Shown here: positions 14,867 to 46,803 of the stretch, one piece after another
Position numbering within the stretch: position 1 is the stretch's first letter
Layout: each line of letters opens with the position of its first letter
NCBI RefSeq assembly: GCF_003846445.2
Contig: NZ_CP030139.2
Location: forward strand, 62,001 to 126,000
Source: Synechococcus elongatus PCC 11801
GTDB lineage: Bacteria > Cyanobacteriota > Cyanobacteriia > Synechococcales > Synechococcaceae
Direction of reading: 5' to 3'
DNA: 64,000 nucleotides
The notes under the pieces: generated by a model
Databases searched by the model: none
What the model was told of the DNA's origin: nothing
The model's input: only the letters and a program-made list of their open reading frames with translations
Position numbers and translations under genes: made by a program

Positions 14867-16045
14867 ATGGATTTCGGAATCGGTTTTCTTTCCAGCAACG
14901 TGATGTTGCCGATCCTAGACTTCTTCTATGGATTGGTACCCAGCTATGGTTTGGCGATTATTGCGCTGACCTTAGTGATTCGGATCGCGCTCTATCCCCT
15001 CAGTGCCGGGGCGATTCGGAATGCGCGCCGGATGCGCATTGCCAATCCTGTCATGCAGAAGCGGCAGCAGGAAATTCGGGAGCGCTATGCCAACGATCCC
15101 AGCAAGCTGCAGGAAGAAACCTCCAAGCTATTCAAGGAATTTGGCAACCCGCTAGCGGGTTGCTTCCCCTTGCTGCTGCAAATGCCGCTGCTGTTTGCGC
15201 TGTTTGCCACCCTGCGGGGCTCGCCCTTTGCGGACATCAACTACACCGTCAATCTGCAAGTCTTGCCCTCAGAGCAGATTGCCCAAGTTCAGCCCCGTGC
15301 GTTTTCGACCAAGCCCCAAAACGTCTTTGTCGCCGATGGTGTGCACTACCGGGTCGCAGCTGTTCTACCAGCGGGCACCCAGCTGGGTGTGGGCGATCGC
15401 ACGACGGTAGCCTTCCAAGGCACGAACGGCGAATCGTTTGAGTCTTTGGTGGGCGATCGCGCTGCTGATTTAAAACCGACTTGGAGCGTGACCAAGGGCA
15501 GCGAACACATTCGGGTTGGCGAAGATGGCGTAGTCGAAGCCGTCTCTGCGGGTGACGCAACGCTGCAAGTCACGATTCCGGGTATTGCCGCCAACAACGG
15601 CTTCCTGTTTATCAAAGCCTTGGGCGAAGTCGGGATCCAGAGCGAAGACGGCATCAACTGGGATGTGTTGGGCCTCGTGTTGGCCTTTGGCGTCAGCCTC
15701 TACGTCAGCCAACAACTCTCCTCCCAAGGTGCTGCTCCCAATCCTCAGCAGGATCAGGTCAACAAAATTACGCCGGTGCTGTTCTCGGGCATGTTCCTGT
15801 TCTTCCCCCTGCCGGCTGGGGTGCTGATGTACATGGTGATCGCCAACATCTTCCAGACCTTGCAGACCTTCATCCTGATGCGGGAACCCCTGCCGGAAAA
15901 TCTGCAGAAATTGGTGGCGGAAGGTGCAGGCGGCACGGGTGGTAGTGGTCTGAGCACAGCTTCGGCTAAAAATCAGACGATTGACACCACGGCGGAACGG
16001 TTACCTTTTGAACCCGGCGGCAATCGCAAGAAGAAAAACGGATGA
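14867..16045 (+). CDS. yidC: Membrane protein insertase YidC/Oxa1/Alb3 with Ig-like loop insert
   Basis: 392-residue insertase for inner and thylakoid membrane proteins. The layout is a first membrane helix pair within residues 12-45, a charged cytoplasmic helical hairpin (50-95), a helix near 100-117, a long extracytoplasmic loop (about 124-262), then helices near 265-283 and 300-337, and a basic tail ending KKKNG. The conserved [16 protein letters not shown] and [12 protein letters not shown] stretches are present. Residues 198-248 of the loop resemble a Big_2-type immunoglobulin-like domain. It overlaps the jag-like gene by four bases. Confidence 0.95.
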
Positions 16046-35566: not shown

Positions 35567-36606
35567 GGCGACTGCTCCCACTCCTGAATCAGCGATCGCA
35601 CGCCGGTCTGCAGGGCTCGAGAGGTCGGGAGATTGAGGAGCGATCGCAGTTGCGAGAGGGCAGTACGGTCATCCAGCTGCTTGAGACTGTAGAGACCATC
35701 CATCGGACAGGGACACTGCGGCAACCAGCGCAGTAACAACAAGGTCGCTGCCTGTTTGTGGGGGTGCTGCCCCAGCGATCGCAGGCAGGCTTGCCAGTCT
35801 GGGACAGTCCAGGCAGTCGTTGAGAGGCGGGCCAGCGCCGTCAGAGTTTCAGTCGTGCCAGCATCCGCGAGCGCAGCGAGGGCAGCGGCACGGCCCCGAC
35901 TCGACTGGGTGGCGATCATCGCCAAACTATTCCAAGCGTCGGAGTTGGCGATCGCAGCAATACTCCAAACGGCTACTCGCACGACCTCTGGATCAGGATC
36001 CCAAGCCCCTGCCCTCAAAACAGCCAACCGTTCAGCCTCTGTGAATTGATCCGAGAAGCGCACTGACTCAAGGGCTGCACGACGAACGAGCGGCTCAGGA
36101 TCTTGGCACAGCTGTTCGAGTCTGGGGCGACTATGGGAGTGGCTAGCTGATCCCAGCGCCGTCGCCGCCAGCGATCGCCATTGCGGATCGGGATCGCTAC
36201 TAAAATTCTGAAGCAGCTGTTGGATCGCCGGATCAGGGTGACTGGCTAGCGCTGGCAGCAGCCAAGGTCGCTCTTCAGGATCCTCTAAGGCCGCTTGGAT
36301 AGAGTCGGTGGCGATCGCTCCTTGCGCTAACCAAGCCCTATAGATTTCTGTTTTGACTAAGCCATCACGACACAACCCTTGCAGGGTGCGCAGAACGGCT
36401 GGAATGCGATCGTGTTGCCACAAACGACAGAGATAGGCCACCAGCCATTGCGTTTGCCAATCATCAGGATTGCTTTGGCAACGGTCGAGACCGTCTTCTA
36501 AGACCCGAATATCAAGGCTTTTGGCGAGTTGCTGCACCTGTCGCCAGCAGTGCTCGAAATCACCGACGGGCCAGCCAGCGCTTTCTGCAAATGTTGCATC
36601 AATCAT
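35557..36606 (-). CDS. nirB: NirB, HEAT-repeat protein needed for full nitrite reductase activity
   Basis: 349-residue protein with repeated helical pairs of HEAT type, for example DPDPQWRSLAATALGSASH, DPEPLVRRAALESV and DPDPEVVRVAVWSIAAIA. This cyanobacterial NirB is unrelated to the E. coli nitrite reductase subunit; in S. elongatus it was reported to be required for maximal nitrite reductase activity. The ATG at 36606 is preferred over a TTG two codons upstream. It is the first gene of nirB-ntcB, divergent from nirA. Confidence 0.88.
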   Translation of the reverse strand: MIDATFAESAGWPVGDFEHCWRQVQQLAKSLDIRVLEDGLDRCQSNPDDWQTQWLVAYLCRLWQHDRIPAVLRTLQGLCRDGLVKTEIYRAWLAQGAIATDSIQAALEDPEERPWLLPALASHPDPAIQQLLQNFSSDPDPQWRSLAATALGSASHSHSRPRLEQLCQDPEPLVRRAALESVRFSDQFTEAERLAVLRAGAWDPDPEVVRVAVWSIAAIANSDAWNSLAMIATQSSRGRAAALAALADAGTTETLTALARLSTTAWTVPDWQACLRSLGQHPHKQAATLLLLRWLPQCPCPMDGLYSLKQLDDRTALSQLRSLLNLPTSRALQTGVRSLIQEWEQSPCA

Positions 36607-36673
36607 GTGCAATCAACACAGGTCAAAAACCATGCTAACGGCTCTACCTAAGCGAGGTTTGGGTACTGAACTT

Positions 36674-36687
36674 GTAGCAATTGCTAC
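36674..36687. promoter_or_regulatory. NtcA-type site 1 (near nirB)
   Basis: GTAGCAATTGCTAC is a perfect, fully symmetric GTA-N8-TAC site 68 bases upstream of the nirB ATG. NtcA activates under nitrogen limitation. Position suggests control of nirB-ntcB. Confidence 0.8.
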
Positions 36688-36715
36688 TAAAAATAGCGAT
36701 CGCTGCCTCAATACC

Positions 36716-36746
36716 TACTCTTTGCCTGCGTTATGGGCAAAGAGTA
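36716..36746. repeat. 11-bp inverted repeat abutting NtcA site 2
   Basis: TACTCTTTGCC (36716-36726) and GGCAAAGAGTA (36736-36746) are perfect arms around 9 bases. The last three bases of the right arm are the GTA of NtcA site 2, so the repeat and the NtcA site overlap. Confidence 0.6.
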
Positions 36747-36757
36747 GCAGTTGTTAC
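36744..36757 (+). promoter_or_regulatory. NtcA-type site 2 (nirA promoter)
   Basis: GTAGCAGTTGTTAC fits GTA-N8-TAC and lies 134 bases before the nirA ATG. It is well placed as the activator site of the nirA operon promoter. Confidence 0.8.
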
Positions 36758-36783
36758 TTAATGTTCTTCCTGCGCAAACTTCT

Positions 36784-36796
36784 TGCAAGATTTGCA
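36784..36796 (+). promoter_or_regulatory. TGCA-N5-TGCA element, candidate NtcB site
   Basis: TGCAAGATTTGCA is a TGCA direct pair (also an inverted repeat, since TGCA is self-complementary) spaced by five bases, 26 bases past NtcA site 2. From memory this resembles the LysR-type element tied to NtcB-dependent nitrite response; not verified here. Confidence 0.45.
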
Positions 36797-36812
36797 TGTC
36801 CCGAAGAAAGTT

Positions 36813-36826
36813 GTAGTTTCTGTTAC
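36813..36826 (+). promoter_or_regulatory. NtcA-type site 3 (nirA leader)
   Basis: GTAGTTTCTGTTAC also fits GTA-N8-TAC exactly and is only 65 bases before the nirA ATG. If transcription starts from site 2, this copy falls in or next to the leader and could repress or do nothing. Confidence 0.45.
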
Positions 36827-36891
36827 CAATCGAGCTAGAGATTCTGCCTAATCTGCCGAACATGCAAGCTGCTTGATAGGCAGATGAATCC

Positions 36892-38430
36892 ATGGCTCAA
36901 GCCACTGTTACTACAGAAAAACTCAATAAATTTGAGAAGATAAAGCTCGAAAAAGACGGGTTAGCCGTCCGTGATCAAGTTGAGCATTTTGCTTCAATTG
37001 GCTGGGAAGCAATGGACCCCAGCGATCGCGAGCATCGGCTGAAATGGCTGGGTATTTTCTGGCGACCCGTAACGCCAGGTCGATTTATGGCTCGACTGCG
37101 AGTTCCCCATGGAATCTTGCAGAGTCGGCAATTGAATGCTTTAGCAAATTTTCTCCAACGCTATGGCGACCAAGCTAGTGTTGATATCACCACGCGGCAA
37201 AATTTACAGCTACGCGGTCTGTTATTAGAAGATACGCCGGCCTTCTTAGAGCGACTGCAATCGGTGGGTTTAACCAGCGTGCAGTCTGGTATGGATAACG
37301 TTCGAAATATCACTGGGTCACCAGTGGCCGGCTTAGATGCTGATGAGTTATTTGATACGCGATCGCTCATTCAGGATTTGCAAGACAATCTGACTGCTTT
37401 GGGTCAAGGCAACCCTGAGTTTACAAACTTGCCTCGCAAGTTTAATATTGCGATCGAAGGCGGACGGGATAATTCGATTCACGCTGAAATTAATGATTTA
37501 GCCTTTACGCCGGCTTATCACAATGGAGTGCTGGGCTTCAACGTTTGGGTTGGTGGCTTTTTCTCCTCGACCCGAGTAGCGCCAGCCATCCCACTCAATG
37601 CTTGGGTGCCTGCTGACCAAAGCGTAATTCAGCTCAGCCGTGCCATTCTCGAAGTCTTCCGCGATCACGGTTCGCGCGGCAATCGCCAGAAGACGCGCCT
37701 GATGTGGCTGATCGATGAGTGGGGAATTGATCACTTCCGCCAAGTCGTCTGCGAAGTCTATGGATCGCCCTTGTCAGAGGCTGCACCCGAGGCCATGGAC
37801 TGGGAAAAGCGCGATTTCCTCGGCGTCCACCCGCAAAAACAAACGGGCCTGAATTATGTCGGTTTGCATGTGCCGGTGGGACGCTTGAAAACGGAAGACC
37901 TCTATGAGTTGGCCCGTCTCGCCGACACCTATGGTCAAGGCGAGGTGCGACTGACAGTTGAGCAAAACGTCATCCTCACCCACATTTCCGATGCTCAACT
38001 GCCGGCGCTGCTGGCAGAACCCCTGCTGGCTCGCTTCTCGCCCCAGCCGGCGCCTCTCAGCCGAGGTACGGTCTCTTGCACCGGGTCGCAGTATTGCAAC
38101 TTCGCACTGATCGAGACCAAGCAGCGGGCGATCGCGATCGCCCAAGCACTCGAGGCTGAGCTAGATCTCCCCCGTCCAGTCCGGATTCACTGGACCGGCT
38201 GTCCCAATTCCTGCGGTCAACCCCAAGTGGCCGATATCGGTTTGATGGGTGCCAAGGTTCGCAAGGACGGCCAAGTCGTTGAGGGTGTGGACATCTTCTT
38301 GGGGGGGCAAGTCGGCCACGCAGCTCATCTCGGAGAGAAAGCTCTGACGGGCATCGCCTGTGAGGACTTACCGGATGTGTTGCGCCAACTGCTGATCGAG
38401 CGATTTGGGGCTCAGGCGCGATCGCGCTAA
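36892..38430 (+). CDS. nirA: Ferredoxin-nitrite reductase
   Basis: 512-residue siroheme enzyme that reduces nitrite to ammonium with six electrons from ferredoxin. The [4Fe-4S]-siroheme cysteines are C396 and C402 (CTGSQYC) and C437 and C441 (CPNSC). The two sulfite/nitrite reductase half-domains and ferredoxin-like repeats are present. It is the first gene of the nirA-nrtABCD-narB operon under the promoter at 36740-36830. Length matches the family. Confidence 0.97.
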   Translation: MAQATVTTEKLNKFEKIKLEKDGLAVRDQVEHFASIGWEAMDPSDREHRLKWLGIFWRPVTPGRFMARLRVPHGILQSRQLNALANFLQRYGDQASVDITTRQNLQLRGLLLEDTPAFLERLQSVGLTSVQSGMDNVRNITGSPVAGLDADELFDTRSLIQDLQDNLTALGQGNPEFTNLPRKFNIAIEGGRDNSIHAEINDLAFTPAYHNGVLGFNVWVGGFFSSTRVAPAIPLNAWVPADQSVIQLSRAILEVFRDHGSRGNRQKTRLMWLIDEWGIDHFRQVVCEVYGSPLSEAAPEAMDWEKRDFLGVHPQKQTGLNYVGLHVPVGRLKTEDLYELARLADTYGQGEVRLTVEQNVILTHISDAQLPALLAEPLLARFSPQPAPLSRGTVSCTGSQYCNFALIETKQRAIAIAQALEAELDLPRPVRIHWTGCPNSCGQPQVADIGLMGAKVRKDGQVVEGVDIFLGGQVGHAAHLGEKALTGIACEDLPDVLRQLLIERFGAQARSR

Positions 38431-38485
38431 GTCCTACTCTTCACCGTGCCTGATTCACTACCCTGTCATCTCCACTTCCAAAATC

Positions 38486-39817
38486 ATGAGTCAATTTTCT
38501 CGGCGTAAGTTCTTGCTGACCGCAGGTGGCACTGCAGCTGCTGCACTCTGGCTGAATGCCTGTGGTGGCAATAACGCTCCCACTGACACAACCGGATCGA
38601 CCTCAACGCCAGCCCCCAGTGGCGCGAGTGGCGGTGACGCACCGGAAGTGAAAGGGGTGACCTTGGGCTTTATTGCCCTGACCGACGCCGCACCCGTGAT
38701 CATTGCCCTCGAAAAAGGGATGTTCGCCAAGTACGGCCTGCCAGAAACCAAGGTGGTGAAGCAAACCTCCTGGGCCGTTACCCGCGACAACTTGGAGTTG
38801 GGTAGCGATCGCGGTGGCATTGACGGTGCTCACATCCTCAGCCCGATGCCCTACTTGCTGACTGCGGGAGCGATTACCAAATCGCAACAACCGTTGCCGA
38901 TGTATATTTTGGCGCGGCTGAATACCCAAGGACAGGCATTCTCACTGTCCAATGAGTTCTTGGCTGAAAAGGTTCAGCTGAAAGATCCCAAGATCAAGGA
39001 AATTGCGGATCAGAAAAAGGCATCTGGAAAACTGCTGAAGGCTGCGGTCACCTTCCCTGGCGGTAACCATGACCTCTGGATGCGCTACTGGTTGGCTGCC
39101 AATGGTGTGGACCCCACAACAGAAGCAGATATTGTGGTCATTCCGCCGCCACAAATGGTCGCCAACATGCAGACTGGCACGATGGATGCCTTCTGCGTCG
39201 GTGAGCCGTGGAATGCGCGCTTAGTGAATAAAAAACTAGGCTATACCGCAGCCGTAACGGGTGAATTCTGGAAGTTCCACCCTGAAAAAGCGCTAACAGT
39301 TCGCGCGGATTGGGCTGACAAAAATCCGAAAGCGGCGATGGCATTGCTCAAAGCAGTTCAAGAGGCACAGATTTGGTGCGAAGATCCCGCTAATCTGGAC
39401 GAGCTTTGCAAAATTACTGCTCAGGATAAGTACTTCAAAACCAGTATCGAAGACATCAAACCCCGTCTCCAAGGCGACATCGACTATGGCGATGGCCGTG
39501 TGGTTAAAAACTCTGACCTACGGATGCGTTTCTGGAGTGAAAATGCTTCCTTCCCCTACAAGAGTCATGACCTTTGGTTCTTGACGGAGGACATTCGCTG
39601 GGGCTATCTGCCAGCTTCAACCGATACGAAAGCTCTGGTTGACAAAGTCAATCGCAGCGATCTGTGGCGCGAAGCAGCAAAAGCGATTGGTCGCGAACAG
39701 GATATTCCTGCTAGTGATTCGCGCGGGGTAGAGACATTCTTCGATGGCGTCACCTTTGACCCCGAAAACCCCAAAGCCTATCTCGACGGCCTCAAATTTA
39801 AAGCCATCAAAGCCTAA
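38486..39817 (+). CDS. nrtA: Nitrate/nitrite ABC transporter substrate-binding lipoprotein
   Basis: 443-residue binding protein. A twin-arginine-type signal (SRRKFLLTAGGTAAAALWLNA) ends at the lipid-attachment C26, followed by a Gly/Thr/Ser/Pro linker and a two-lobe binding domain starting VTLGFIALTDAAPVIIALEK. It captures nitrate and nitrite in the periplasm. The ATG at 38486 gives this signal; the longer frame does not. A strong palindrome follows the gene. Confidence 0.96.
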   Translation: MSQFSRRKFLLTAGGTAAAALWLNACGGNNAPTDTTGSTSTPAPSGASGGDAPEVKGVTLGFIALTDAAPVIIALEKGMFAKYGLPETKVVKQTSWAVTRDNLELGSDRGGIDGAHILSPMPYLLTAGAITKSQQPLPMYILARLNTQGQAFSLSNEFLAEKVQLKDPKIKEIADQKKASGKLLKAAVTFPGGNHDLWMRYWLAANGVDPTTEADIVVIPPPQMVANMQTGTMDAFCVGEPWNARLVNKKLGYTAAVTGEFWKFHPEKALTVRADWADKNPKAAMALLKAVQEAQIWCEDPANLDELCKITAQDKYFKTSIEDIKPRLQGDIDYGDGRVVKNSDLRMRFWSENASFPYKSHDLWFLTEDIRWGYLPASTDTKALVDKVNRSDLWREAAKAIGREQDIPASDSRGVETFFDGVTFDPENPKAYLDGLKFKAIKA

Positions 39818-39831
39818 GTCATCTTGTTCAC

Positions 39832-39855
39832 GCCTGCGATCGCGCGATCGCAGGC
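39832..39855 (+). repeat. 24-bp perfect palindrome (two abutting HIP1 sites) between nrtA and nrtB
   Basis: GCCTGCGATCGC is followed directly by GCGATCGCAGGC, a perfect inverted repeat with no spacer, containing two HIP1 octamers (39836-39843, 39844-39851). As RNA it forms a GC-rich hairpin 14 bases after the nrtA stop. It may protect nrtA mRNA or reduce read-through to nrtB. Confidence 0.85.
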
Positions 39856-39874
39856 ATTCTCACCGTTTTCTGTC

Positions 39875-40714
39875 ATGACTACCGCACTCCGCCCTCCCAG
39901 TTCACTTCGTCGCTCGGCTTGGGCTAGCAATCCTAAGCTCAAGCCCTTCCTGCCCTACGTCATCTGCCTGCCGATCTTCTTAGCCATCTGGCAAGTGATT
40001 TCAGCCATCCTTGGGGAATCCCGTTTGCCTGGCCCCATCAACGTGGTGGCCAACACCTGGATGCCCTACATTGCGGAGCCCTTCTTTGATAACGGTGGTA
40101 CCAGCAAGGGTCTGGGTCTACAAATTCTGATCTCCCTACAACGGGTTGCGATCGGCTACCTTTTGGCTGCGTTCACCGGCATTTTGATCGGTGGCATTTT
40201 GGGTATGAGCAAGTTTCTTGGCAAAGGGCTTGATCCGGTTATTCAAGTTCTGCGAACGGTGCCCCCGCTGGCTTGGTTCCCCATCTCCTTGATGGTGTTC
40301 CAAGATGCCAACACTTCAGCAATCTTCGTGATTTTCATTACGGCAATTTGGCCAATTATCATCAATACGGCGGTTGGAATTAACCAAATTCCGGATGACT
40401 ATAACAACGTTGCTCGCGTTCTCAAACTCAGCAAGAAGGACTACATCCTCAATATTTTGATTCCTTCAACTGTTCCTTATGTCTTTGCTGGCTTACGAAT
40501 TGCAGTGGGCCTCGCTTGGTTAGCGATCGTGGCTGCTGAAATGCTCAAAGCTGACGGTGGAATTGGCTACTTTATTTGGGATTCCTACAACGCTGGCGGG
40601 GATGGGAGTTCGAGTCAAATTATTCTGGCGATTTTCTATGTCGGTCTCGTCGGTCTGAGCCTCGATCGCCTTGTGGCTTGGATTGGTCGTCGTGTCAGTC
40701 CTGTCAGCCGCTAG
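39875..40714 (+). CDS. nrtB: Nitrate/nitrite ABC transporter permease
   Basis: 279-residue membrane permease with about six helices and the ABC permease EAA-type loop near NNVARVLKLSKKDYILNILIPSTVPYVF. It forms the channel with the NrtC and NrtD ATPases. The ATG at 39875 was chosen as the longer frame begins inside the nrtA-nrtB palindrome. Confidence 0.95.
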   Translation: MTTALRPPSSLRRSAWASNPKLKPFLPYVICLPIFLAIWQVISAILGESRLPGPINVVANTWMPYIAEPFFDNGGTSKGLGLQILISLQRVAIGYLLAAFTGILIGGILGMSKFLGKGLDPVIQVLRTVPPLAWFPISLMVFQDANTSAIFVIFITAIWPIIINTAVGINQIPDDYNNVARVLKLSKKDYILNILIPSTVPYVFAGLRIAVGLAWLAIVAAEMLKADGGIGYFIWDSYNAGGDGSSSQIILAIFYVGLVGLSLDRLVAWIGRRVSPVSR

Positions 40715-40728
40715 GGAGTCTCATCGTC

Positions 40729-42714
40729 ATGTCTGTTTTCTTAGCGGTTGACCACGTTCATCAGGTTTTTAACCTGCCCGGTGGCGGTCAGTACATTGCC
40801 CTCAAAGATGTCAGTCTGAATATCCGCCCCGGCGAATTTATCTCTTTAATTGGCCACTCCGGCTGTGGTAAATCCACTCTTCTCAACTTAATTGCAGGGC
40901 TCACGCAACCCAGCAGCGGCGGCATCATCCTTGAAGGTCGGCAAGTGACGGAACCCGGCCCCGATCGCATGGTGGTGTTCCAAAACTATTCGCTGCTGCC
41001 CTGGCGAACCGTGCGTCAAAACATTGCTCTAGCGGTGGATAGCGTCCTTCGCGATCGCAACCGCACGGAACGTCGCACGATCGTTGAAGAAACCATCGAC
41101 TTGGTGGGACTGCGAGCAGCCGCAGACAAGTACCCGCACGAGATTTCGGGCGGCATGAAACAGCGGGTTGCGATCGCTCGGGGCTTGGCGATTCGTCCCA
41201 AACTGCTGCTGTTGGATGAACCCTTCGGCGCTCTAGATGCTCTGACTCGCGGCAACCTGCAAGAACAGCTGATGCGGATTTGCCAAGAGTCGGGCGTGAC
41301 CGCCGTGATGGTCACCCACGATGTCGATGAAGCACTCCTGCTTTCCGATCGCGTGGTGATGCTGACCAATGGACCGGCAGCGCAAATCGGCCAGATTCTT
41401 GAAGTTGATTTTCCGCGTCCCCGGCAGCGGCTGGAGATGATGGAAACACCGCACTACTACGAGCTGCGGAACGAGTTGATCAACTTCCTGCAGCAACAAC
41501 GGCGGGCGAAACGGCGATCCAAAGCAGTGCCGACATCTGTACCTGCCGTGGCCACAGCTTCGCGGCAGCAAACAGTGCGACTCGGCTTTTTGCCAGGCAA
41601 TGACTGTGCTCCCCTAGCGATCGCGAAAGAATTGGGCTTGTTCCAAGACGTGGGTCTGGAAGTTGAGCTGCAATCCTTCCTGACTTGGGAATCGCTGGAA
41701 GATAGCCTTCGCCTTGGGCAATTGAACGGTGCTTTGATGATGGCATCGCAACCGCTGGCGATGACCATGGGTTTGGGCGGTCACCGTCCACTGCCGATTG
41801 CCACGCCGCTGACAGTCAGCCGCAATGGTGGCGCGATCGCCTTTAGCCGTCGCTACTTGGAAGCAGGCGTGCGCAGCCTTGAGGATCTGCGGGACTTCCT
41901 CGCTGAGCATCCCCAGCGCTTGCGCTTGGCTATTCCTGATGCGATCGCGATGCCCGCCCTGCTCCTGCGCTATTGGTTAGCCAGTATCGGCTTGGATCCC
42001 GATCGGGATGTCGAGCTGGTGGTGATGTCGCCCTACGAGATGGTGGAGGCGCTTAAGGCTGAGGAAATCGATGGCTTTGCCGCTGGCGAAATGCGCATCG
42101 CCTTGGCAGTGCAAACTGGTTCAGCCTACGTGCTCGCCACGGATTTAGATATTTGGGCAGGGCACCCAGAAAAAGTGCTGGGCTTGCCCGAAGCGTGGCT
42201 ACAAGCTAATCCTGAAGCAGCGATCGCCCTTTGCGCTGCGCTGCTCAAGGCCGGGGAAATCTGTGATGATCCGCGTCAGCGCGATCGCATCGTCGAAGTG
42301 CTGCAACGCCCGCAATATCTCGGCTCTGCAGCTGGAGCTGTGCTGAAGCGCTATTTCGACTTTGGTCTGGGTGGTGAACCCACACAAATCCTGCGCTTCA
42401 ACCAATTCCATGTCGATCAGGCCAACTACCCCAATCCGCTGGAAGGCACTTGGTTGCTCACGCAGCTCTGCCGCTGGGGACTGACGCCACTGCCCAAGAA
42501 CCGGCAAGAACTGCTCGATCGCGTCTATCGCCGCGACATCTATGAGGCTGCGATCGCCTCAGTCGGTTTCCCACTGATCGCACCCAGCCAGCGGACCTTC
42601 GAGCTGTTTGATGCGGTGCCCTTCAACCCCGATCGTCCCCTGCAGTACCTCGAACAATTCGAGATCAAAGCGCCGATTCAAGTCGCTCCCATTCCGCTTG
42701 CCACTTCTGCCTAG
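40729..42714 (+). CDS. nrtC: Nitrate transporter ATPase NrtC with fused NrtA-like domain
   Basis: 661-residue fusion. Residues 1-260 form an ABC ATPase (Walker A GHSGCGKST, signature ISGGMKQR, Walker B LLLLDEPFGALD), followed by a linker rich in Arg and Gln/Thr. From about residue 285 a NrtA-like substrate-binding domain begins (VRLGFLPGNDCAPLAIAKEL) without a signal peptide, so it is cytoplasmic. In S. elongatus this domain mediates ammonium inhibition of transport. It starts 14 bases after nrtB. Confidence 0.96.
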   Translation: MSVFLAVDHVHQVFNLPGGGQYIALKDVSLNIRPGEFISLIGHSGCGKSTLLNLIAGLTQPSSGGIILEGRQVTEPGPDRMVVFQNYSLLPWRTVRQNIALAVDSVLRDRNRTERRTIVEETIDLVGLRAAADKYPHEISGGMKQRVAIARGLAIRPKLLLLDEPFGALDALTRGNLQEQLMRICQESGVTAVMVTHDVDEALLLSDRVVMLTNGPAAQIGQILEVDFPRPRQRLEMMETPHYYELRNELINFLQQQRRAKRRSKAVPTSVPAVATASRQQTVRLGFLPGNDCAPLAIAKELGLFQDVGLEVELQSFLTWESLEDSLRLGQLNGALMMASQPLAMTMGLGGHRPLPIATPLTVSRNGGAIAFSRRYLEAGVRSLEDLRDFLAEHPQRLRLAIPDAIAMPALLLRYWLASIGLDPDRDVELVVMSPYEMVEALKAEEIDGFAAGEMRIALAVQTGSAYVLATDLDIWAGHPEKVLGLPEAWLQANPEAAIALCAALLKAGEICDDPRQRDRIVEVLQRPQYLGSAAGAVLKRYFDFGLGGEPTQILRFNQFHVDQANYPNPLEGTWLLTQLCRWGLTPLPKNRQELLDRVYRRDIYEAAIASVGFPLIAPSQRTFELFDAVPFNPDRPLQYLEQFEIKAPIQVAPIPLATSA

Positions 42715-42723
42715 GTCTTGACC

Positions 42724-43548
42724 ATGACTGCCATCCTTCCCCCCACGGCCTCGAAAGTGAAAACGGGTTTTCTGCATTTCGATTGCGTTGGCAAAACTTT
42801 CCCCACGCCCCGCGGTCCCTACGTTGCAATCGAGGACATCAATCTCTCCGTGGAACAGGGAGAGTTTATCTGTGTGATCGGCCACTCGGGCTGCGGCAAA
42901 TCAACGCTGCTCAATCTGGTGTCTGGCTTCTCGCATCCCACCAGCGGCGGGGTCTATTTGGATGGAAAGCCAATTCAGGAACCCGGCCCCGATCGCATGG
43001 TGGTGTTTCAAAACTATTCGCTCTTGCCCTGGAAGAGTGCTCGCGAAAATGTGGCGCTGGCGGTTAAAGCAGCGCGGCCCCACCTCAGCCCCAACGAGCA
43101 ACGCCAAGTTGTTGATCATCACCTTGAGCTCGTGGGGTTGATGGAGGCACAGCATAAGCGACCCGATCAGCTTTCGGGTGGTATGAAACAGCGAGTGGCG
43201 ATCGCCCGGGCGCTCTCGATTCGGCCTGAAGTGCTGATTCTGGACGAACCCTTTGGTGCCCTTGACCAAATCACCAAGGAAGAACTGCAAGAAGAGTTGC
43301 TCAATATCTGGGAGGAGACGCGCCCAACGGTGCTGATGATCACCCACGACATCGACGAAGCACTGTTCTTAGCTGATCGCGTCGTGATGATGACCAACGG
43401 TCCTGCTGCCACGATTGGTGAAGTGCTGGAGATTCCCTTCGATCGCCCCCGCGATCGTGAAGCGGTGGTGGAAGACTCGCGCTACGCCCAATTGCGTACC
43501 GAAGCCCTCGATTTCCTCTATCGACGCTTTGCTCACGACGACGATTAA
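42724..43548 (+). CDS. nrtD: Nitrate transporter ATPase NrtD
   Basis: 274-residue ABC ATPase without the sensor domain. Walker A GHSGCGKST, signature LSGGMKQR, Walker B VLILDEPFGALD and switch MITHDIDEA are present. It pairs with NrtC to power uptake. The ATG at 42724 follows the nrtC stop by nine bases. Confidence 0.96.
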   Translation: MTAILPPTASKVKTGFLHFDCVGKTFPTPRGPYVAIEDINLSVEQGEFICVIGHSGCGKSTLLNLVSGFSHPTSGGVYLDGKPIQEPGPDRMVVFQNYSLLPWKSARENVALAVKAARPHLSPNEQRQVVDHHLELVGLMEAQHKRPDQLSGGMKQRVAIARALSIRPEVLILDEPFGALDQITKEELQEELLNIWEETRPTVLMITHDIDEALFLADRVVMMTNGPAATIGEVLEIPFDRPRDREAVVEDSRYAQLRTEALDFLYRRFAHDDD

Positions 43549-43573
43549 TCCCTCCTCTTGCTGCTCGTCAGCG

Positions 43574-43633
43574 CAGGGAAATCCCTGAGGGGGTTATCCA
43601 TCCCAGCATCCCTTCTCTTACACAGGAGAAGGG
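43574..43633 (+). repeat. Two hairpins between nrtD and narB
   Basis: CAGGGA/TCCCTG (43574-43579, 43582-43587, a two-base loop) and CCCTTCTC/GAGAAGGG (43610-43617, 43626-43633). Neither is followed by a T run, so full termination is unlikely; they may mark an mRNA processing or attenuation point before narB. Confidence 0.6.
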
Positions 43634-43733
43634 ACCTCAATCTCGCTTTCAAGCGCTCTTCAGCCGTTGAAGGAGAGGAGTGGAAGGCGAGGGCAATTTT
43701 AGTACCCAATTTCTGCCGGCCATCACGCGACTC

Positions 43734-45914
43734 ATGACCGACCCTGCGAAAACCTTGTGCCCTTATTGCGGTGTCGGTTGTGGTCTCGAAGCCGTTCCTC
43801 CCGCCCAACCCGGTCGAGCAACCGTGCGCGATCGCGAGGGCACACCAGTCTGGCAAATTCGGGGCGATCGCCAGCATCCCTCTAGTCAGGGCATGGTCTG
43901 CGTCAAAGGCGCAACAGTCGCGGAATCCGTCAGCAAGGATCGGCTGAAATATCCAATGTTTCGAGCCAGTCTCGACGATCCGTTTACGGAAATTGGCTGG
44001 GACGAAGCCCTCGATCGCCTCTGCGATCGCATCCAGCAGGTACAAGCCGACTACGGCAAAGACGGCATCTGCTTCTACGGCTCTGGCCAGTTTCAAACCG
44101 AGGACTACTACATCGCCCAAAAGCTGGTAAAAGGCTGTTTGGGCACCAACAATTTCGACACCAACTCTCGCCTCTGCATGTCCTCGGCAGTGTCGGCCTA
44201 TAGCCTCAGCCTTGGCAGTGATGGCCCACCAGCTTGCTACGAGGACTTGGATCTAGCAGACTGCTTGCTGATTGTCGGCAGCAACACGGCAGAATGCCAC
44301 CCGATTCTGTTTAACCGCTATCGCAAGCGCCATAAACAGGGCGGCACCAACCTGATCGTTGTTGATCCGCGTCGTACGCCCACCGCTGAAGTCGCCGATC
44401 TCCACCTTGCTCTCAAGCCTGGCAGCGACGTTGCTTTACTCAACGGTTTGGGCTGGCTGCTGCATCAGATGGGCTACGTCAAAAAAGACTTCATTGCTAA
44501 CCAGACCGAGGGTTTTGAGGACTGGCTGGCCATCATTCAGGATTACCCGCCTCAGCGTACGGCAGAACTCACAGGACTAGAAATTGCCGATCTCGTCCGA
44601 GCCGCCGACCTGATTGCTTCGGCGCAGCGCTGGCTCTCGCTTTGGTCGATGGGTGTCAATCAATCGATTCAGGGCACAGCCAAAGCAACGAGCCTGATCA
44701 ACTTGCATCTGCTGACGCGGCAGATTGGTCTACCGGGCTGTGGCCCTTTTTCCTTGACGGGGCAGCCCAATGCCATGGGCGGCCGCGAAACTGGCGGACT
44801 GGCGCACCTGTTGCCGGGCTATCGCAAGGTGATTGATCCTAAACATCGTGCCGATGTGGAAGCGATTTGGGGACTGCCTGCTGGCAGCATTGCCGCTCAA
44901 CCTGGCCGCACCGCTTGGCAAATGATCGAAGGACTGGAGCAAGGTGCCGTTGGTTTACTCTGGGTGGCTGCTACGAATCCAGCGGTGAGTCTGCCGGATG
45001 TGAAACGGGCTCAAGCTGCCATGAAGCGATCGCCCTTCACTGTTCTCCAAGACGCTTACCATCCCACCGAAACCACCACCTACGCGCATCTCCTTTTACC
45101 TGCTGCCCAGTGGAGCGAGAAAACGGGCACGATGACCAATTCTGAACGGCGCGTCACGCTTTGCCAAGCCTTTCGGCAGCCACCGGGGGCAGCACGAGCT
45201 GACTGGCAGATTTTCGCAGAAGTCGGACGGCGCTTGGGTTTCCATTTCGACTACGCTGATTCTGCTGCCGTGTTTGCAGAATATGTGCAGGTGACGGCTG
45301 GCCGAGTCTGTGATCTCAGTGGTCTGAGTCATGAACTGTTAGCCAAGGCTGGCCCACAACAGTGGCCCTTCCCAGCAGGCGCAGAACCGACAACCGAGAG
45401 TAAGCGGCTCTACACCAACCATCGCTTTGCCTATGCCGATGGTCGAGCCCGCTTCCAGCCATTCCATCACCTTGGGGTGGCAGAACCGCCTGACGTCCGC
45501 TACCCACTTGTGCTGACGGTGGGACGACTCTACGGCCATTGGCATACCCAAACCCGCACGGGTCGGATCGACAAGATCCAGAAGTTGCACCCTGGCGCAT
45601 TTGTTGAAATTCATCCCCGCGATGCCGATCGCTACAAGATCAGCGAGGGACAACCGGTGTTGATTCGATCGCGGCGTGGCGAAGGCTGTTTCCCCGCCAA
45701 AGTAACGACAGCGATTTCGCCGGGAGTCCTGTTCGTGCCGATGCACTGGGGGGCGCTCTGGGGCGATCGTACCGAGGCCAATGCCCTCACTCATCCTGCG
45801 GCTTGTCCCATTTCTGGCGAACCGGAACTGAAAGCCTGCGCCGTGCAAATTGAAGCGCTGCCCGCCGCGATCGCTGACCACAAAACCGCGATCGCAGAAC
45901 TGGTTCCTTCCTAA
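43734..45914 (+). CDS. narB: Ferredoxin-nitrate reductase, molybdopterin type
   Basis: 726-residue assimilatory nitrate reductase that converts nitrate to nitrite with electrons from ferredoxin. An N-terminal [4Fe-4S] site CPYCGVGC (residues 9-16) and a fourth Cys in GMVCVKGA precede a bis-MGD molybdopterin domain ([51 protein letters not shown]) and a C-terminal dinucleotide-binding domain. The ATG at 43734 is used; a GTG at 43680 would add 18 residues. Last gene of the nitrate operon. Confidence 0.96.
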
Positions 45915-46134
45915 GACGGGGAATGCAGTAGGAATCGTGACGACTTTGCTGATCACGAGGGTGCCGTAGACCTGCGATCGCTCAGAACAACCGCCACTCC
46001 AACCGTTGCGCTTTTCAAGGAAATAATCTCTGCTAATGTGAATAAAAATAAAGTTCCTTAAAAGGCGTCTGCTTCCCTTGGTTGTTACGTCCCGTCCAAC
46101 CGCCGATACCCTTGTCCGGCTGCTGTCACGGGAC

Positions 46135-46803
46135 ATGGCTCTTAGTACGCCACGCCCCTGGGTCAAATTGTGGGCAGCCGCCTTTCTGGTCTCCGTACCA
46201 GTTTTTGTCCAAGCCCCTTTGGTGCGGCTCTGTCCAGAGGCGAGTCTGCTAATCAGCCTGATTTGGTTTGCGATCGCTGGTTTGTTGCAGCGTCAACCGC
46301 GCTGGCAGAGTTGGGGCGATCTTCTCCAAGGCTTTGCGTGGAGCTGGTTGGCTGGCTCAATCTATTGGGGTTGGTTGCGTTGGGAACCCTACCTCCATCT
46401 GCCAGTCGAAGCGATCGCCCTTCCTTTGGTCATTGTGGGGCTGCGACGCCAGCAAGGTCTGGTTGGCCATGGTTTTTACTTGGGCTCCTTGATCGGCACT
46501 GCGGTCACCGACGGTTACTTCTACTGGATTGGTGCCGTTCCCTTCTGGCGAGAAATTGCCCGCAGTAGTCCCACTGAAGCGTTGCCACTCGCGCAGCAGG
46601 CGATCGCCTGTCTCCAATCACCGACTGCTTTGGTGGGGGCGATCGTGCTCATTCCCTTGCTCTGTGGGGCAGGTGTCTGGGCATTGCGTCAGCCCCGTCC
46701 TGCCCACTGGGCGTTTGCGGGTGCCGTGCTCGGAACGCTACTAGTTGATGCCTTGTTTGGCTTGGTTGCTGTAAGCGATCGCTTGAGTTTAACTCAGTTG
46801 TGA
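46135..46803 (+). CDS. DUF3120-family membrane protein
   Basis: 222-residue hydrophobic protein with about six helices. Residues 10-35 (KLWAAAFLVSVPVFVQAPLVRLCPEASL) carry the pattern of the cyanobacterial DUF3120 family. Function unknown. The ATG at 46135 is used in place of a TTG 19 codons earlier. It follows narB by about 220 bases with an AT-rich region between, so it probably has its own promoter. Confidence 0.7.
   Translation: MALSTPRPWVKLWAAAFLVSVPVFVQAPLVRLCPEASLLISLIWFAIAGLLQRQPRWQSWGDLLQGFAWSWLAGSIYWGWLRWEPYLHLPVEAIALPLVIVGLRRQQGLVGHGFYLGSLIGTAVTDGYFYWIGAVPFWREIARSSPTEALPLAQQAIACLQSPTALVGAIVLIPLLCGAGVWALRQPRPAHWAFAGAVLGTLLVDALFGLVAVSDRLSLTQL

What the first reader, a model, noticed from the sequence alone, without database searches (positions are those of the whole stretch)
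39832..39855. Two abutting HIP1 sites form a 24-bp perfect palindrome between nrtA and nrtB
The hairpin follows the gene for the binding protein, which is usually needed in excess of permease and ATPases. HIP1 is normally treated as a genome-wide repeat of unclear role; here a pair seems to act as an RNA stem inside an operon.
Basis: partly seen in the sequence, partly recalled or inferred. Interest (0 to 1): 0.55.

Follow-up and report, generated by a model that had tools for sequence, protein, structure and literature searches.

The report
RNA hairpin between nitrate transporter genes
A perfect DNA palindrome between the first two nitrate-transporter genes of a cyanobacterium most likely folds into an RNA hairpin that shields the message for the nitrate-catching protein, and many other cyanobacteria carry unrelated hairpins at the same spot.

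Summary
In detail: GCCTGCGATCGCGCGATCGCAGGC is a perfect 24-bp palindrome at 39832-39855, 14 nt after the nrtA stop and 19 nt before the nrtB ATG. As RNA it folds at -20 kcal/mol, z -3.9. Abutting HIP1 pairs are not special: 11 in the genome, about 20 expected, the other ten inside open reading frames; only this one has 12-nt arms. The one other genome of the genus found keeps all 24 bases but not the T-rich stretch behind them. Of 112 testable nrtA-nrtB gaps of cyanobacteria, 43 hold a hairpin at p<=0.01 against shuffles; cmpA-cmpB 3 of 30, nrtB-nrtC 9 of 73, nrtA 3' coding ends 0 of 122. These hairpins differ in sequence, start a median 9 nt after the stop and show no U excess. Best reading: a malE-malF-type stabiliser of the upstream nirA-nrtA mRNA, not an intrinsic terminator; HIP1 is local building material. 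No RNA data could be opened. A 2009 screen had listed an RNA element at nrtA-x-nrtB, with no function in the text I saw.

The parts
39832..39855 (+). 24-bp perfect palindrome; RNA stem of 10 pairs with a 4-nt loop
39836..39843 (.). HIP1 site, left
39844..39851 (.). HIP1 site, right (abutting)
39832..39835 (+). left arm extension GCCT outside HIP1
   Evidence: kept in the other genome of the genus; the other 10 abutting pairs have at most one extra pair
39852..39855 (+). right arm extension AGGC outside HIP1
39856..39874 (+). stretch between stem and nrtB ATG; its T-rich part is not kept in the other genome of the genus
38486..39817 (+). nrtA, nitrate-binding protein (gene name by recall; no family scan was run)
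39875..40714 (+). nrtB, permease (gene name by recall)
40729..42714 (+). nrtC, ATPase with a binding-protein-like C-terminal part (by recall)
   Evidence: gap to nrtB 14 nt
36892..38430 (+). nirA, nitrite reductase, upstream in the same operon (name by recall)
   Evidence: PMC6091082 reports one start site for nirA-nrtABCD in UTEX 2973

Best explanation
The palindrome is an intercistronic RNA hairpin that acts as a 3'-end stabiliser. The nirA-nrtABCD message is transcribed through it; after cleavage or decay enters nrtBCD, 3'-to-5' exonucleases (PNPase, RNase II) stall at the GC-rich stem, so the nirA-nrtA part lasts longer and the binding protein NrtA is made in excess of NrtB-D, as at E. coli malE-malF. 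In this lineage the stem is built of two HIP1 sites plus four extra pairs; other cyanobacteria use unrelated stems. Shown here: palindrome, predicted fold, conservation in one other genome, position bias across cyanobacteria, lack of U-tract. Inferred: exonuclease block, unequal mRNA levels, unequal protein levels.
For: Fold -20 kcal/mol, z -3.9. All 24 bases kept in the other genome of the genus against 24 of 33 other gap positions (one-sided Fisher 0.004). Post-stop hairpins in 43 of 112 nrtA-nrtB gaps at p<=0.01 against 3 of 30 cmpA-cmpB (p 0.002), 9 of 73 nrtB-nrtC (p 0.00007) and 0 of 122 nrtA 3' coding ends. Same contrast for gaps of 50-150 nt: 31 of 63 nrt, 2 of 18 cmp. 42 of 43 stems begin 3-21 nt after the nrtA stop; for stem score >=20 in full 80-nt stretches 92% of 59 do, against 43% of 67 shuffled. 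U in the 8 nt after the stem: mean 2.40, expected 2.23; 4 or more in 7 of 43, about 6.8 expected. Some related genomes keep pairing through double changes (2 double, 0 broken in L096/L098; 3 double but also 4 broken in L102/L103). Gaps upstream of urtB show it too: 9 of 27 at p<=0.01, 16 of 27 at p<=0.05. Precedent in E. coli: in the ABC operons found, the stabilised gene is the binding protein, and the protecting hairpins lack U-tracts (PMC5927463, passages). In Synechococcus PCC 7002, HIP1 was always among the top motifs in the flanks of the most stable against the least stable transcripts, unexplained by the authors (PMC7406221, one passage).
Against: No transcript data were seen. PMC13289151 (passages) says stabilising structures are largely absent at U-tract-less 3' ends of S. 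elongatus (75 of 163 structured). The own-genome cmpA-cmpB gap, also behind a binding-protein gene, has no hairpin (L197, p 0.79), so a binding-protein gene does not always carry one. 69 of 112 nrt gaps do not pass p<=0.01, and 10 of 122 are too short or could not be measured. With plain minimum free energy the contrast is weaker: 36 of 112 nrt, 5 of 30 cmp, 10 of 73 nrt B-C, 7 of 24 cmp B-C at p<=0.02. Many within-genus stems are simply unrelated or show broken pairs (41 broken, 16 double over the comparisons counted). HIP1 is itself kept at 65 of 82 sites between the two genomes and 5 of 11 abutting pairs are kept, so keeping the HIP1 core is weak evidence; the 8 arm-extension bases alone give p 0.11.
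Confidence: 0.57

Rival explanations
1. Leaky transcription terminator or pause: the stem makes part of the RNA polymerases stop, lowering nrtBCD transcription itself (as reported for the phycocyanin operon).
For: PMC3219970 (passages) describes incomplete terminators between genes of one operon in S. elongatus and RNA polymerase peaks enriched at HIP1 sites (41 of 7,402 sites). Strong GC stem.
Against: Tail ATTCTCAC has 3 T in 8; the consensus scan did not list it among 14 terminator-like sites; the T-rich part is replaced by C in the other genome of the genus; no U excess behind the hairpins of other cyanobacteria.
Confidence: 0.2
2. No RNA function: two HIP1 sites of a HIP1-rich genome happened to abut between genes and are kept by whatever keeps HIP1 in general.
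For: HIP1 kept at 65 of 82 aligned sites against 26% of all 8-mers sampled; 5 of 11 abutting pairs kept; abutting pairs no more frequent than expected.
Against: Only abutting pair with four extra complementary pairs, and these are kept too; hairpins of other sequence at the same place elsewhere.
Confidence: 0.15
3. A processing or binding site: the stem marks an endonuclease cut, a small-RNA or protein site, or insulates nrtB translation.
For: PMC13289151 names processing, RNA-RNA contacts and hairpin pausing as other roles of such structures. The stem lies 19 nt before the nrtB ATG.
Against: Sequences differ among genomes, so a sequence-specific binder is unlikely; the predicted fold leaves the stretch before the nrtB ATG unpaired; no Rfam match.
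Confidence: 0.08

Closest known systems
E. coli malE-malF intercistronic stabilising hairpin and related ABC-operon hairpins (PMC5927463, passages)
   Same: Hairpin without U-tract behind the binding-protein gene of an ABC import operon; upstream segment expected to be stabilised.
   Different: Unrelated sequence, HIP1-built stem, cyanobacterium (a group reported to lack Rho); no decay data here.
RNA element 'nrtA-x-nrtB (6301)', cluster 86 of Voss et al. 2009 (author name by recall; PMC2662882, section 6 with Table 1 read)
   Same: Same gene gap, in a strain closely related to the presumed source (by recall); RNAz P 1.0, reverse 0.999.
   Different: Only a table row: 42-nt alignment, one sequence in 6301 and one in BP1 whose place is not given; nrtA is named once and HIP1 nowhere in the main text; no function given in what I read. 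That it is this palindrome is my inference.
HIP1 (PMC4390886, word search of the text; PMC3219970, passages)
   Same: Contains two exact HIP1 octamers.
   Different: HIP1 is described as a DNA-level repeat tied to methyltransferases; words beginning with terminat, hairpin, RNA, intergenic or tandem do not occur in the PMC4390886 text held.
Incomplete intrinsic terminators inside S. elongatus operons (PMC3219970, passages)
   Same: Stem between genes of one operon, expected effect on stoichiometry.
   Different: No U-tract here, and the T-rich part is not conserved.

Membership tests
Intrinsic (Rho-independent) terminator | GC-rich hairpin | tested here: met
   -20 kcal/mol, z -3.9
Intrinsic (Rho-independent) terminator | U-tract (4 or more U in 8) directly behind the stem | tested here: not met
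   ATTCTCAC has 3 of 8; ACTCACCC in the other genome has 1 of 8; site not listed by the scan
Intrinsic (Rho-independent) terminator | RNA polymerase release at the site | not testable with these tools
   needs in vitro transcription or polymerase ChIP
malE-malF-type intercistronic mRNA stabiliser (functional class) | Stable hairpin just behind the binding-protein gene, before the permease gene | tested here: met
   14 nt after the stop
malE-malF-type intercistronic mRNA stabiliser (functional class) | No U-tract | tested here: met
malE-malF-type intercistronic mRNA stabiliser (functional class) | 3' ends at the stem and longer half-life of the upstream mRNA | not testable with these tools
REP element (dispersed extragenic palindrome family) | Many similar copies, extragenic | tested here: not met
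   none of the other 10 abutting HIP1 pairs of the genome has 12-nt arms; 100 of 110 HIP1 pairs at spacing 0-15 examined lie in ORFs. A search for copies with mismatched arms was not run
HIP1 | Exact GCGATCGC octamer, over-represented | tested here: met
   181 in the window against 2.2 in shuffles
Any Rfam 15 family | Match | tested here: not met
   0 matches at E<=1 in 36000-46500; 0 at gathering score in 20 other loci

The most novel reading that the evidence does not exclude
Cyanobacterial nitrogen-uptake ABC operons (nrt, and probably urt) carry a repeatedly re-invented 3'-protective hairpin at a fixed place a few nt behind the binding-protein stop codon, with no sequence in common, as a way to set binding-protein stoichiometry in a group without Rho; S. 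elongatus built its copy from the genome-wide HIP1 repeat, so HIP1 can be taken up as an RNA part, as REP was in enterobacteria.
Probability: 0.35. Interest if true: 0.62.

Novelty: new member of a known kind. Interest (0 to 1): 0.42.

Why it matters
PMC13289151 (2026; abstract and passages) leaves open how U-tract-less transcripts of S. elongatus are protected from decay and finds such structures largely absent; this is a concrete conserved site where the protective-hairpin answer can be tested on data already deposited. It also offers a case where HIP1 may be used at the RNA level, and a rule (hairpin just behind the nrtA stop) testable across cyanobacteria.

Tried and rejected
HIP1 doublets as a general RNA-stem class: of 110 HIP1 pairs at spacing 0-15 examined, out of about 155 in the genome, arms extend by 2 or more pairs in 2 of 10 non-coding and 3 of 100 coding ones, Fisher 0.06: suggestive only, not claimed. 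(With an ORF cut-off of 140 instead of 110 aa, one search had counted 4 of the first 30 spaced pairs as non-coding.)

Abutment as the remarkable thing: rejected, 11 seen and about 20 expected; the other genome of the genus has 9.

Intrinsic terminator by consensus scan: 14 terminator-like sites in 12 kb against 13.2 in shuffles, this site not among them. HIP1 pairs with one base between them in the window: none.

Palindrome as the start of a longer NrtB: rejected from the gap length change and the missing start codon in the other genome; the frame itself is open in both.

The search for related loci gave only 4 relatives; 3 were used and one (L015, an Acidobacteria bin) was left out.

Literature: searches for the element or for HIP1 in RNA were made; one search was for the malE precedent. 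Of the papers I opened, only PMC2662882 names the nrtA-nrtB gap as an RNA element. Seen as found passages only: PMC3219970, PMC7406221, PMC5927463, PMC6091082, PMC11349869, PMC8400943, PMC7283877, PMC3516471, PMC13249358, PMC9120777; the last eight of these apart from PMC5927463 gave nothing on an nrtA:nrtB ratio or a hairpin there. Other papers in the listings were not opened. Papers outside this open library, such as the first nrt operon papers, were not seen.

Known flaws of the survey: the NrtC query was one base out of frame, so the first downstream ATPase gene was in effect found with the NrtD query; the nrtB-nrtC stretches still start at the nrtB stop, but some downstream ends may be off (gaps near 800 nt in four loci). 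Start codons were guessed by homology and ATG preference. Loci were picked by hand from the cut match lists. L076 was dropped as the same place as L197; in 2 of 157 loci no binding-protein gene was found; 10 nrt gaps were under 30 nt or had no usable start; 3 loci were ambiguous between nrt and cmp. The p values come from 199 shuffles and a stem score of my own; related genomes were not removed, but one search gives the rate by genus. The urtB upstream gaps were delimited by a cruder ORF rule and the upstream gene was taken as urtA by position, not checked: 30 loci given, 1 without an upstream frame, 2 gaps too short, and 7 of the 27 (L232, L237, L240, L243-L246) with a short or cut upstream frame; without these it is 6 of 20 at p<=0.01 and 13 of 20 at p<=0.05. 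Two of the hits (L238, L239) have T- or A/T-rich tails and may be terminators. No non-binding-protein gap of the urt operon was tested.

Full report
What is there. Reading the window gives GCCTGCGATCGCGCGATCGCAGGC at 39832-39855, a perfect palindrome, 14 nt behind the nrtA stop codon (39815-39817) and 19 nt before the nrtB ATG (39875). It is the longest of 14 perfect palindromes of at least 14 bp in the window. The strand read as RNA folds into 10 pairs with a 4-nt loop at -20 kcal/mol; none of 200 shuffles folds as well. The neighbourhood, nirA-nrtA-nrtB-nrtC-nrtD and a following nitrate-reductase-like frame, is the nitrate assimilation operon of a Synechococcus elongatus-like genome; these names are from recall. 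PMC6091082 (passage) reports a single start site for nirA and nrtABCD in strain UTEX 2973.

Is the HIP1 pair special? HIP1 is very common here: 181 sites in 64 kb against 2.2 in shuffles. The genome has 11 abutting pairs; placing 7,402 sites (number from PMC3219970) at random gives about 20, and 144 pairs at spacings of 1-15 give about the same rate per spacing as the 11. So abutment is ordinary. Of the 11, ten lie in open reading frames, with palindromes of 16 or 18 bp; only the nrtA-nrtB one is extended to 24 bp. A TTG-start ORF runs through that one too, but in the other genome of the genus the gap is a base shorter and the frame has no start codon before the palindrome. Among 110 HIP1 pairs at spacing 0-15 that I examined, of about 155, 100 lie in ORFs; extension of the arms is more frequent outside ORFs (2 of 10 against 3 of 100) but not significantly (p 0.06).

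Conservation near by. In the only other genome of the genus found (G001; NrtB 95% identical) the 24 bases are unchanged, while 24 of the other 33 gap positions are (one-sided Fisher 0.004). The T-rich CCGTTTTCT behind the stem reads CCGCCC-CT there. A caution: HIP1 sites are kept in general (65 of 82 against 26% of 8-mers sampled; 24-mers 3.9%), and 5 of the 11 abutting pairs are kept at the homologous place. The eight bases outside HIP1 alone give p 0.11.

Wider survey. I collected 157 loci with an NrtB/CmpB relative: 3, 30, 24 and 100 taken by hand from the listed matches. One search had matches in 207 of 291 genomes and its list was cut, so this is mainly the better-scoring part. In 155 a binding-protein gene was found upstream: 122 nearer NrtA, 30 nearer CmpA, 3 ambiguous. 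The best stem-loop in the first 80 nt behind the stop was scored and compared with 199 dinucleotide shuffles of the same stretch. At p<=0.01: nrtA-nrtB 43 of 112 gaps of 30 nt or more, cmpA-cmpB 3 of 30, nrtB-nrtC 9 of 73, cmpB-cmpC 3 of 24, nrtA 3' coding ends 0 of 122, nrtB 3' coding ends 1 of 122; the 3 ambiguous A-B gaps 0. By genus, the mean rate sums to 25.0 of 67 for nrtA-nrtB, 5.6 of 43 for nrtB-nrtC, 3.0 of 26 for cmpA-cmpB and 3.0 of 21 for cmpB-cmpC. In gaps of 50-150 nt it is 31 of 63 nrt against 2 of 18 cmp. By plain folding energy the excess is smaller: 36 of 112 nrtA-nrtB, 5 of 30 cmpA-cmpB, 10 of 73 nrtB-nrtC and 7 of 24 cmpB-cmpC at p<=0.02, and 2 of 122 nrtA coding ends. The stems share no sequence that I could see in the list; 6 of 43 contain HIP1, and without the HIP1-bearing gaps it is still 37 of 105. 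They start at a median of 9 nt behind the stop, 42 of 43 within 3-21; strong stems in shuffled gaps do so in 43% of 67 cases, real ones in 92% of 59. Behind the stems there is no U excess (mean 2.40 of 8, expected 2.23; 7 of 43 with four or more, about 6.8 expected). In related genomes some stems keep pairing through double changes (L096/L098: 2 double, 1 single, 0 broken; L102/L103: 3 double, 4 broken), but over the within-genus comparisons of more than 45% identity there are 183 unchanged, 16 double, 21 single, 41 broken and 16 gapped pairs, so covariation is supporting evidence at best.

Other junctions. The own cmpA-cmpB gap has no hairpin (L197, p 0.79), nor has that of G001 (L198, p 0.52). 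Gaps upstream of urtB, fetched with the UrtB model, often do: 9 of 27 at p<=0.01, 16 of 27 at p<=0.05; leaving out seven with a short upstream frame, 6 of 20 and 13 of 20. That the upstream gene is urtA was not checked. This genome's own best match to that model stays below the curated cut-off. So the feature follows some binding-protein genes, not all.

Mechanism. A stable, U-tract-less hairpin right behind a binding-protein gene is the anatomy of the E. coli malE-malF stabiliser. PMC5927463 (passages) reports that in malEFG and four further ABC operons the stabilised gene is the binding protein, that in 26 of 34 gene pairs with a stabilised 5' gene the RNA ends just behind a stable hairpin, and that these hairpins lack U-tracts. 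I take the same mechanism as most likely (0.57): read-through, decay of nrtBCD, exonucleases halted at the stem, a longer-lived nirA-nrtA message. One more hint: in Synechococcus PCC 7002 HIP1 was always among the top motifs flanking the most stable transcripts, and its role was called unexplained (PMC7406221, passage). A leaky terminator is the main rival (0.2): PMC3219970 gives such cases in this species and RNA polymerase peaks at HIP1, but the U-tract is missing and the T-rich part not conserved. Chance with HIP1 upkeep is a third (0.15).

Known or new. The effect, if real, is of a known kind. The spot itself had been flagged: PMC2662882 Table 1, cluster 86, 'nrtA-x-nrtB (6301)', RNAz probability 1.0 (section 6 read); the gene pair is named once in the main text, with no function there. 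Rfam gave no match. What I did not find in print is the reading as a binding-protein stabiliser, the recurrence with unrelated sequences, or HIP1 as an RNA stem. PMC13289151 (abstract and passages) states that stabilising structures are largely absent at U-tract-less 3' ends of S. elongatus and does not name nrt genes or HIP1 in its main text; if the site forms an end, it would belong with the structured ones (75 of 163). Its data (GSE309256) would decide the matter and could not be opened here.

Noticed in passing
L217-L246 (gaps upstream of urtB): Hairpins of unrelated sequence also stand in the gap upstream of urtB in many cyanobacteria: 9 of 27 gaps at p<=0.01, 16 of 27 at p<=0.05.
   Followed up: partly
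38126-38143: 18-bp palindrome of two overlapping HIP1 sites inside nirA.
   Followed up: no
38416-38427: 12-bp palindrome GCGCGATCGCGC ending right before the nirA stop codon TAA at 38428-38430.
   Followed up: no
L035, around 1501-1530: HIP1 pair of the same genome in a seemingly non-coding place with three extra arm pairs, spacing 14.
   Followed up: no
15144-15163: 20-bp perfect palindrome without HIP1, second longest of the window.
   Followed up: no
18569-45856 against L089-L092: HIP1 sites are kept intact at 65 of 82 aligned places between two genomes 83% identical in the aligned part, against 26% of 8-mers sampled.
   Followed up: partly
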